From: an endosymbiont of unidentified scaly snail isolate Monju | GTDB taxonomy: Bacteria > Pseudomonadota > Gammaproteobacteria > Chromatiales > Chromatiaceae | NCBI RefSeq assembly: GCF_000801295.1 | Contig: NZ_AP012978.1 | Coordinates: 1,488,001-1,552,000 of the forward strand | Reading direction: 5' to 3' | Length of the DNA: 64,000 nucleotides | In this document: one piece after another, positions 54,995 to 56,545 of the stretch | Layout: each line of letters opens with the position of its first letter | How positions within the stretch are numbered: position 1 is the first letter of the stretch | The notes under the pieces: model-generated | Databases searched by the model: none | Told to the model about the DNA's origin: nothing | The model's input: the letters and a program-made list of their open reading frames with translations, nothing else | Position numbers and translations under genes: made by a program

Positions 54995-55182
54995 GGTTCG
55001 GCCCGAGGACTGGCCTCCTACACGTGGGGGCGGCGCCCCGTCGCGAACATTCGGCCCGGGGACGGGCCTCCTGCGGGTAAGAGCGACGTCCCCGTCGCGA
55101 AAATTCGGCCCAAGGACCGGCCTCCTGCGGTAGGAGCGGCGTCCCCGCCGCGAACCCTTCGGCCCGGGGACGAGGGTAGGAG
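54995..55182. repeat. REP/BIME-like cluster 8 (left part of the array split by IS110)
   Basis: Alternating units, including GAGCGACG-TCCC-CGTCGCGAA and GTAGGAGCGGCG-TCCC-CGCCGC. The last unit ends after its GTAGGAG head at 55182, and the remainder of that unit (CGGCGTCCCCGCCGCGAA) resumes at 56371 after the IS110 element. Confidence 0.92.
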
Positions 55183-55185
55183 ATC

Positions 55186-56143
55186 CTATGTCTGCATGCA
55201 ACGATTTCTTGGCCGATATTCGGTTTCATTTCGCAAGATGGCAAAAGCGACCCTGGCGAGCTTTCTGCCGAGGATGACCAGGGCCTGGACCAGGGCCTGG
55301 ACCGGCGCCAGGCCGCGGTCGAGATACCGCTGGTAGAAATCTCGCCAGGCTGGCGTTCGACACGCGCGCATGGCAGCGAGGTAGAGCAGGCGTCGCAACT
55401 CGGCGTTGCCTTTCTTGGTGAGCTTTCGTCGCCCACGCATCTGACCGGAATCATGCACGCGCACATCCATGATAAAGGCGTCGGAGGAGCGGAATGAGCC
55501 GCGCTGAAAGGCGGTGACCAGGGCGGCGGCGGTGAGGGGGCCAAATGCCCTCGATGGCCTGCACACGCAAGGCCCTGTCTTTCCAGGCAGCTTTCTCGAG
55601 CCATTTCTGGATCTGCTGATCGATCTTTCTTTCAAGTGTCTTGAAGTGATCGAAGAGCGCCTGAATCTGTGGCTTGAGGCCTGGCAGATCAGCCAGGCTT
55701 TGTCGCAGTTTGGTCTTGGCCTGGACGATGACGGCACGCCGGTTGAGCAATCCCAGCAAGGTGGTATAGGCCTTGGGAGGCGGGCTCCAAGGGCGCAGGC
55801 TGTCGTGCTCATTGACCAGGTAACGGCGCAGCAGGCGAGCATCGGAGGTGTCGTTCTTGGCCCGGATGCCCACGCTGTCCCGATAGCGACTCAAGCGGAA
55901 GCCATCAATGAGATAGATCGTATGGCGGGCCTTGAAGGCGAGTTCGCACACCAGGAGGTGAAAGGTGCTGGTGGCCTCGAGGGCGATTTCGACCGGACCC
56001 GGTGGCAGCGAATCGAGCCAGGCGGCAATGGACTGACGGTCATTGGAAATCGACTGGACGGGGCCGTTGCTGTCATCACAGATATCCAGGCCCTGTTTGC
56101 TGACATCGATACCGATCAGCAGGGGTTGCACAGGCATTGCCAT
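55186..56143 (-). pseudogene. IS110-family transposase (bridge recombinase) with a one-base frameshift
   Basis: The N-terminal DEDD (RuvC-like) domain has Asp in LLIGIDVSKQGLDIC, Glu in EIALEATSTFHLLVCEL and Asp residues in AKNDTSDARLLRRYL. The C-terminal Tnp domain has GPLTAAALVTAFQRGSFRSS with the candidate catalytic Ser and KLTKKGNAELRRLLYLAAMR. Between VQAIEGI and GPLTAAAL the frame breaks near 55543, where ATTTGG stands for an expected ATTGG (one extra T). Without it the protein would be about 318 residues, the usual size. GGAGGAAAC precedes the ATG at 56143. Confidence 0.92.
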
Positions 56144-56149
56144 GATGTT

Positions 56150-56345
56150 TCCTCCCGACTAGTGTAGAGAGCAGGATTTGTCGGGGTTCACCCAAGGCGC
56201 TGGCTTGCGAAAATTGTCGGTCCGTATTGGCCGATAGATCCCTTATTGGCGCTGGGGTGAGGGCGGGACGATTTCTCCTACTGTCTGTACTCAAGGTCAA
56301 AGGTCAGATGCGGCGTTCGTCCCTCCGCCCCGACAGGTCCTTTCT
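56150..56345 (-). ncRNA. Candidate bridge RNA of the IS110 element
   Basis: The leader of the element contains, in RNA sense, a stem GGGACGA (56323-56317) / TCGTCCC (56271-56265). The enclosed internal loop has ACGCCGC on its 5' side (56316-56310) and GTAGGAG on its 3' side (56281-56275), with an inner stem TCTG/CAGA. ACGCCGC equals the left target half on the top strand and GTAGGAG is complementary to the right target half CTCCTAC, as known for the target-binding loop of IS621-type bridge RNAs. GGATCT at 56241-56236 matches the element's right end plus core and may be the left donor guide. Limits are approximate. Confidence 0.65.
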
Positions 56346-56370
56346 GACCCATCGAGAGGAAACATACAAG

Positions 56371-56545
56371 CGGCGTCCCCGCCGCGAAAATTCGGCCCGA
56401 GGACCGGCCTCCTGCGGTAGGAGCGGCGCCCCCGCCGCGAACCCTTCGGCCCGGGGACGGGCCTCCTGCGACAACCCCACCATCCGACCGCAGGAGCGGC
56501 GTCCCCGCCGCGAACAGCCAGCACCCTCGCCGCGAATATTGGCGA
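56371..56545. repeat. REP/BIME-like cluster 9 (right part of the array split by IS110)
   Basis: It begins with the distal part of the interrupted unit and continues with about five units up to 6 bp before the RNB gene stop. A 70-75-bp block (56386-56460) repeats 55099-55172 with about two differences, so the array had been tandemly duplicated. Confidence 0.9.

What the first reader, a model, noticed from the sequence alone, without database searches (positions are those of the whole stretch)
55183..56370. IS110 element inside a REP hairpin with a readable bridge-RNA target loop
Seen directly: deleting 55183-56370 restores a perfect REP unit (GTAGGAG|CGGCGTCC), both junctions carry CT on the transposase strand, and the 5' leader has a stem GGGACGA/TCGTCCC whose internal loop carries ACGCCGC on one side and GTAGGAG on the other. 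These equal the left target half and the complement of the right target half. Known: IS110-family elements such as IS621 use a bridge RNA with such left and right target guides, a CT core, and REP targets. Inference: this leader is a bridge RNA programmed for this genome's own REP family. With more than 30 potential targets in this window alone, REP arrays may be a safe landing pad.
Basis: partly seen in the sequence, partly recalled or inferred. Interest (0 to 1): 0.88.

Follow-up and report, generated by a model that had tools for sequence, protein, structure and literature searches.

The report
REP-targeting IS110 element with bridge RNA
This is a jumping gene of the recently explained RNA-guided IS110 kind, whose guide RNA is matched to a repeat scattered through its own host's genome; the principle is already known, but this copy is a clear new example and its recombinase gene is broken in an unexpected, shared way.

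Summary
55183-56370 is a 1188-bp IS110-group element. Its exact removal restores a type-1 REP unit (GACGCCG^CT^CCTAC), and its 228-nt leader is a bridge RNA. The helices around both loops covary in 26 homologues, and guides match targets across elements far better than shuffled (0 of 20,000). RT and RTG agree in 75 of 77 readable pairs.

All six copies in this genome with both ends readable sit at the same position of type-1 REPs. None sits in the equally abundant type-2 REPs, which mismatch the left guide. In a sister genus, guide and host REP changed together (ACGCCG to GCGCCG). The REP family has its own RAYT gene.

"More than 30 targets" is overstated: the window holds 12 type-1 REPs and 15 CT-core sites within three mismatches of the guides.

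All five full-length copies share one extra T in the GIGP motif, which separates the RuvC domain from the catalytic-serine domain. No intact copy was found. Either broken copies were moved in trans by a lost intact one, the break spread by gene conversion, or a +1 frameshift is used.

The parts
55183..56370 (-). Complete IS110-group insertion sequence, 1188 bp
   Evidence: Five full-length copies in the genome with identical ends and different flanks; flank joining restores a REP
56371..56384 (-). Left target half: ...GGGGACGCCG, type-1 REP arm abutting the LE end
   Evidence: Sequence; 14-mer across the junction identical to intact REPs at 55130 and 4574
55176..55182 (-). Right target half CTCCTAC including the CT core copy
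   Evidence: Sequence
56363..56370 (-). LE tip CTTGTATG (CT core copy plus TGTATG, right donor)
   Evidence: Invariant in all 26 aligned leaders
56143..56370 (-). Leader / predicted bridge RNA region (228 nt)
   Evidence: z -4.8 fold; covarying helices in 26 homologues, 11 pairs changed on both sides, 0/500 shuffles
56317..56323 (-). 5' arm of the target-binding-loop stem GGGACGA; its 3' arm TCGTCCC is at 56265-56271. The last A overlaps the first base of the LTG
56309..56317 (-). Left target guide AACGCCG followed by the two core-facing bases CA
   Evidence: Matches the left target of own copies at 4-6 of 7 positions; covaries with target across elements
56284..56308 (-). Apical hairpin of the target-binding loop, TCTGACC...GAGTACAGA
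   Evidence: 7 pairs, 98.9% of cells paired, 3 pairs with changes on both sides
56275..56281 (-). Right target guide GTAGGAG (complement of CTCCTAC)
   Evidence: 7/7 match at all own copies; T/C polymorphism tracks the target in 75 of 77 readable pairs
56236..56244 (-). Left donor guide AAGGGATCT (donor RE end is ATAGGAT^CT)
   Evidence: An A to G change in guide and donor end is shared only by this element; relatives have A in both
56204..56207 (-). Putative right donor guide CAAG, complement of CTTG of the LE tip
   Evidence: Invariant in 26 leaders; role by analogy with IS621 (PMC11208158)
56143..56158 (-). Ribosome-binding-site region able to pair with the LE tip (-27 kcal/mol)
   Evidence: strong only in this element among 41 leaders
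55451..56143 (-). N-terminal ORF, 230 aa, RuvC-like DEDD domain (PF01548, E 6e-15)
55534..55549 (-). Frame break: GGCATTTGGCCCCCTC (one extra T; frame-intact copies and the sister-genus copy have GGCATTGG / GGCATCGG)
   Evidence: Present in all 5 full-length copies, absent from two degraded copies and from the sister-genus homologue
55186..55842 (-). C-terminal ORF carrying Transposase_20 (PF02371, E 4e-11) with the predicted catalytic serine (HDSGQ)
   Evidence: aligned with the IS621 Tnp domain
55183..55201 (-). RE end ...TTGCATGCAGACATAGGAT; joined to the LE it makes TTGCAT-17-TATGTT, a sigma70-like promoter in the circular form
   Evidence: consensus match only
55130..55143 (-). Neighbouring intact type-1 REP target site, unoccupied

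Best explanation
The element is an IS110-group insertion sequence. Its leader encodes a bridge RNA. One internal loop pairs with a type-1 REP (left guide AACGCCG, right guide GTAGGAG). The other pairs with the element's own RE-LE junction (ATAGGAT^CT^TGTATG). A RuvC-like/Tnp recombinase would then exchange strands at the CT core, so insertions land at one base of one REP class. Shown here: family domains, ends, exact site, guide-target and guide-donor match, covarying structure, and co-change of guide and host REP in a sister genus. Inferred: that the RNA is made, binds the protein and guides recombination in this organism. The window copy is a dead or non-autonomous copy: its reading frame is broken and it lacks four conserved residues, so it was most likely placed by an intact recombinase supplied in trans or decayed after insertion.
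For: Pfam domains PF01548 and PF02371. Homology to the IS621 and ISCro4 recombinases of known structure, E about 1e-24. Six copies with both ends readable are all at the CT core of type-1 REPs, 0 in the equally common type-2 REPs (136 against 137 sites), and every right target is CTCCTAC, though only about 28 of the 100 listed type-1 sites are. Left guide-target matches across 38 distinct pairs: 186/266 against 139 +/- 6.5 shuffled, 0/20,000. Right guide tracks the target's T/C in 75 of 77 readable pairs. Donor guide and donor end share an A to G change. Structure covariation: 11 pairs changed on both sides, 0/500 shuffles, collapses when slid. Sister genus G019: guide GCGCCG, host REP mostly GGCGCCG, against ACGCCG/GACGCCG here. 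RAYT gene embedded in the same REPs.
Against: No RNA or activity data. The fold of the isolated RNA leaves the guides about half paired. The left guide mismatches position -7 of every own target, and one copy (L003) has three mismatches of seven. The nine loci of Pseudomonas laurylsulfativorans (within L080-L089, in the register I used) and L098, L105 match poorly. The two core-facing bases of the left guide are CA, not CT. No intact recombinase gene of this element was found in the genome.
Confidence: 0.93

Rival explanations
1. The recombinase protein, not an RNA, recognises the REP palindrome; the guide-like leader sequences are a coincidence or a relic of REP capture.
For: Before 2024 the transposase itself was thought responsible for REP targeting (PMC1525189). 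The guide motifs are only 7 bases each.
Against: Guide and target covary between elements at each half, guide and REP change together in the sister genus, type-2 REPs with the same right half and palindromic form are not used, and the mechanism is proved for IS621 (PMC11208160, PMC11208158).
Confidence: 0.04
2. The split reading frame is functional: ribosomes shift +1 at TGG CCC CCT to make the full recombinase, as a dose control.
For: All five full-length copies at different sites share the same break. The three base differences downstream of the break are all synonymous in the C-terminal frame. A CCC-C run is present at the break.
Against: Nearly all homologues with a readable ORF have it uninterrupted, and so has the sister-genus fragment. 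The break lies in the conserved GIGP motif. No report of programmed frameshifting in this family was found in the library. The window copy also lacks AFLG. Three synonymous changes are few and may predate the break.
Confidence: 0.1
3. The frame break arose once and spread among already inserted copies by gene conversion, so no broken copy needed to move.
For: The window copy is a mosaic: 5' part with the extra T, 3' part with the 12-bp deletion and 12-bp duplication typical of the other copy class, so copies do recombine.
Against: Conversion would have had to carry the T to all five full-length copies while leaving other differences in place.
Confidence: 0.35

Closest known systems
IS621 (E. 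coli, IS110 group; bridge RNA archetype)
   Same: RuvC-like plus Tnp domains, CT core, leader-encoded bridge RNA with target and donor loops, REP target (PMC11208160, PMC11208158); detectable protein homology over residues 9-307
   Different: Different REP family and guides; right guide pairs over at least 7 bases rather than 4; left-guide core bases CA; almost no RE beyond the stop codon; frame-broken gene
ISPpu9 and ISPpu10 (Pseudomonas putida, IS110 family)
   Same: All copies at one position of the host REP (PMC1525189); [quoted passage not shown]
   Different: Host REP sequence; I could not compare them letter by letter with named records
Unnamed IS110-group elements in Pseudomonas, Alcanivorax, Methyloversatilis and Natronospira (L027-L106)
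   Same: 46-54% protein identity, LE CTTGTATG, RE ATAGAAT^CT, same loop anatomy
   Different: Intact ORFs; guides and targets differ in step with each other; donor base A instead of G

Membership tests
[quoted passage not shown]
   E 6.1e-15 on the N-terminal ORF
IS110 family, IS110 group | C-terminal Tnp domain with conserved serine (PF02371) | tested here: met
   E 4.1e-11, but in the shifted frame; HDSGQ lies opposite the IS621 YESGS (S241 region)
IS110 family, IS110 group | One uninterrupted recombinase ORF of about 300-460 aa | tested here: not met
   Frame break in this and all full-length copies. Homologues are intact, so I read this as a defective member, not as another family
IS110 family, IS110 group | Long LE, short RE, no terminal inverted repeats | tested here: met
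   LE about 227 bp, RE 3 bp after the stop codon
IS110 family, IS110 group | Dinucleotide core shared by target and both ends | tested here: met
   CT at both junctions and in the empty site
IS110 family, IS110 group | Bridge RNA with target and donor loops | tested here: met
   Covarying helices, guide-target and guide-donor agreement
IS110 family, IS110 group | Circular intermediate with promoter across the RE-LE junction | tested here: inconclusive
   TTGCAT-17-TATGTT on joining the ends, 7 of 12 consensus positions; other stretches score the same
IS110 family, IS110 group | RNA-guided recombination activity | not testable with these tools
   Needs expression and recombination assays
IS1111 group | Long RE and subterminal inverted repeats of 7-17 bp | tested here: not met
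   RE is 3 bp
REP / RAYT system (the target) | Many dispersed imperfect palindromes plus a REP-associated tyrosine transposase gene flanked by them | tested here: met
   136 type-1 and 137 type-2 sites; RAYT (PF01797, HVHW) at C1:734816 with REPs on both sides

The most novel reading that the evidence does not exclude
The recombinase of this IS110 lineage is made by programmed +1 frameshifting between its RuvC and Tnp domains. Since the active site is composite between protomers, such a split would throttle an RNA-guided recombinase; it would be the first such control in the family that I know of.
Probability: 0.08. Interest if true: 0.5.

Novelty: new member of a known kind. Interest (0 to 1): 0.32.

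Why it matters
It independently confirms, in an organism outside the published examples, that bridge-RNA guides follow the host's own REP sequence: two sister genera differ at the same base in guide and REP. That makes 'how do RNA-guided elements keep up with a drifting target family' testable by comparison. The shared frame break also suggests that copies with a dead recombinase gene can spread as long as the guide RNA and ends are intact, which bears on non-autonomous elements of this family.

Tried and rejected
Rfam has no family matching the region, so no ready-made bridge-RNA model was available; I used covariation on homologues instead. RNAalifold on the MAFFT alignment put the right guide into a stem (columns 101-121); that came from the target-stem register and I replaced it with a hand-drawn structure whose controls are clean. 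My first guide-extraction pattern was wrong and was rerun (then 24). No programmed frameshifting paper for IS110 was found. Masking of the ribosome-binding site by the LE tip looked general at first but is strong only in this element among 41 leaders, so I do not build on it. Plasmid records gave only distant relatives, all below 60% identity (about 30% for the best rows listed).

Full report
What is there. On the transposase (minus) strand it begins CTTGTATG (56370) and ends ACATAGGAT (55183), followed by CTCCTAC in the flank. Joining the flanks gives ...TTCGCGGCGGGGACGCCG CT CCTACCC..., whose core 14-mer is identical to intact REP units at 55130 and 4574. The host genome (2.6 Mb, one contig) holds five full-length copies, one copy interrupted by another insertion, and one 5'-truncated copy. 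All six copies with both ends readable have the same junction inside a type-1 REP, and the truncated one shows the same right half. The 228-base leader is identical in six copies.

Is the REP a REP? The repeat comes in two forms, ending GACGCCGCTCCTAC (type-1) and GACGGGCCTCCTAC (type-2), arranged in opposite orientation as in BIMEs. Pattern counts are 136 and 137 in the genome, against 9 and 0 for reversed patterns. A 148-aa RAYT gene (PF01797, HVHW motif) at C1:734816 lies inside an array of both forms. So this is a genuine RAYT-associated family.

Is the leader a bridge RNA? Rfam has no matching family. Eighty homologous loci at 46-54% protein identity were collected. All but three share CTTGTATG at the LE, and those with a readable end share ATAGAAT^CT (in one, ATAGAAT^TT) at the RE. 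In 26 aligned leaders a structure with an outer stem, a target stem, an apical hairpin TCTGAC.../...GTACAGA and two donor-side helices has 93% standard pairs. Eleven pairs show changes on both sides against 4.1 in shuffles (0/500), and the signal collapses when partners are slid by one base. The guides lie between these helices.

Do guides match targets? For 38 distinct left guide-target pairs, 186 of 266 positions agree, against 139 +/- 6.5 when guides are shuffled among elements (0 of 20,000). By distinct guide the figures are 110/140 against 75 +/- 4.8. The right guide is CTCCTAC- or CTCCCAC-specific, and the target agrees in 75 of 77 readable cases. Related sequences are not independent events, so the shuffle is a guide to size, not a strict probability. 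Within this genome the same logic holds. Type-2 REPs share the right half but differ at three positions in the left half; none is occupied. All right halves used are CTCCTAC although only about 28 of 100 listed type-1 sites have it. On the donor side, this element has ATAGGAT^CT with guide AAGGGATCT where relatives have ATAGAAT^CT with guides such as AAAGAAT or AAGGAAT: one base changed in both partners.

Does the guide follow the host? In a sister genus (G019), five leader pieces 84-90% identical to this one were found. The left guide of the longest (84% identical) reads AGCGCCG and its left target GGGGCGCCG. There, 86 of 98 REP-like sites have G at position -6, while in the window's genome about 95 of the 100 listed have A (counted by eye from the lists, and the two patterns used differ slightly). 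Guide and repeat therefore changed together between sister genera. Other copies in G019 have guide AGCGTCG next to GGCGGCG, a mismatch, so the match is not perfect.

The recombinase gene is split. Frame 1 (55451-56143) carries the RuvC-like domain; the Tnp domain with its serine is in another frame. The cause is one extra T in GGCATTTGGCCCCC, present in all five full-length copies but absent from the interrupted and truncated copies and from the sister-genus homologue (GGCATCGGCC). The frame-intact copies in turn lack 12 bp coding for AFLG in a conserved motif and carry a 12-bp duplication. The window copy is a mosaic with the T on the 5' side and the deletion and duplication on the 3' side. 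No intact gene was found in this genome by protein search. I take the likeliest history to be mobilisation of defective copies in trans by an intact copy since lost, together with exchange among copies. Gene conversion alone and a functional +1 frameshift are the rivals. The three base differences downstream of the break are synonymous in the C-terminal frame, which is suggestive but too few.

How it works. By established knowledge of IS621 (PMC11208160, PMC11208158), the excised circle joins RE to LE, and the bridge RNA, transcribed from a promoter across that junction, holds target and donor for strand exchange next to the CT core. The joined ends here give TTGCAT-17-TATGTT, a weak consensus match. 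Expression, binding and recombination are inferred, not shown.

Novelty. Insertion of IS110-family elements into REPs was described by 2006 (PMC1525189, which cites the earlier IS621 work) and RNA guidance in 2024 (PMC11208160). This is a new member.

Noticed in passing
L014 (G000:C1:845443-846741) and L015 (near C1:716048): A second insertion sequence with ends like TGAACCGCCCCGGGTTTCC...GGGGCGGTTCA interrupts one copy of this IS110 element and abuts the truncated one.
   Followed up: no
window 56143-56158 with 56347-56370: The LE tip can pair with the ribosome-binding region of the transposase gene (-27.2 kcal/mol, shuffled -10.4 +/- 2.8), which could silence read-through transcripts. Strong only in this element among 41 leaders.
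   Followed up: partly
L107 (G000:C1:734816-735049): RAYT gene of 148 aa lying in an array of both REP forms, the probable source of the REP family.
   Followed up: partly
G000:C1:752909-753258: Array of seven type-1 REP sites at 56-bp spacing, six of them GATGCCGCTCCTAC, ending 50 bp before another copy of the element.
   Followed up: no
G000:C1:708335, 715572, 1543161 and 709776: A REP variant CTCCTACCCTCGTCCCCGGGCC occurs only four times: beside three copies of the element and once unoccupied, hinting at exchange between these loci.
   Followed up: partly
L080-L089 (Pseudomonas laurylsulfativorans): The left guide appears shifted by about one or two bases relative to the usual spacing (AAAGCTCGTCATCTGAC), yet the copies read here sit in REP-like sites.
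   Followed up: no
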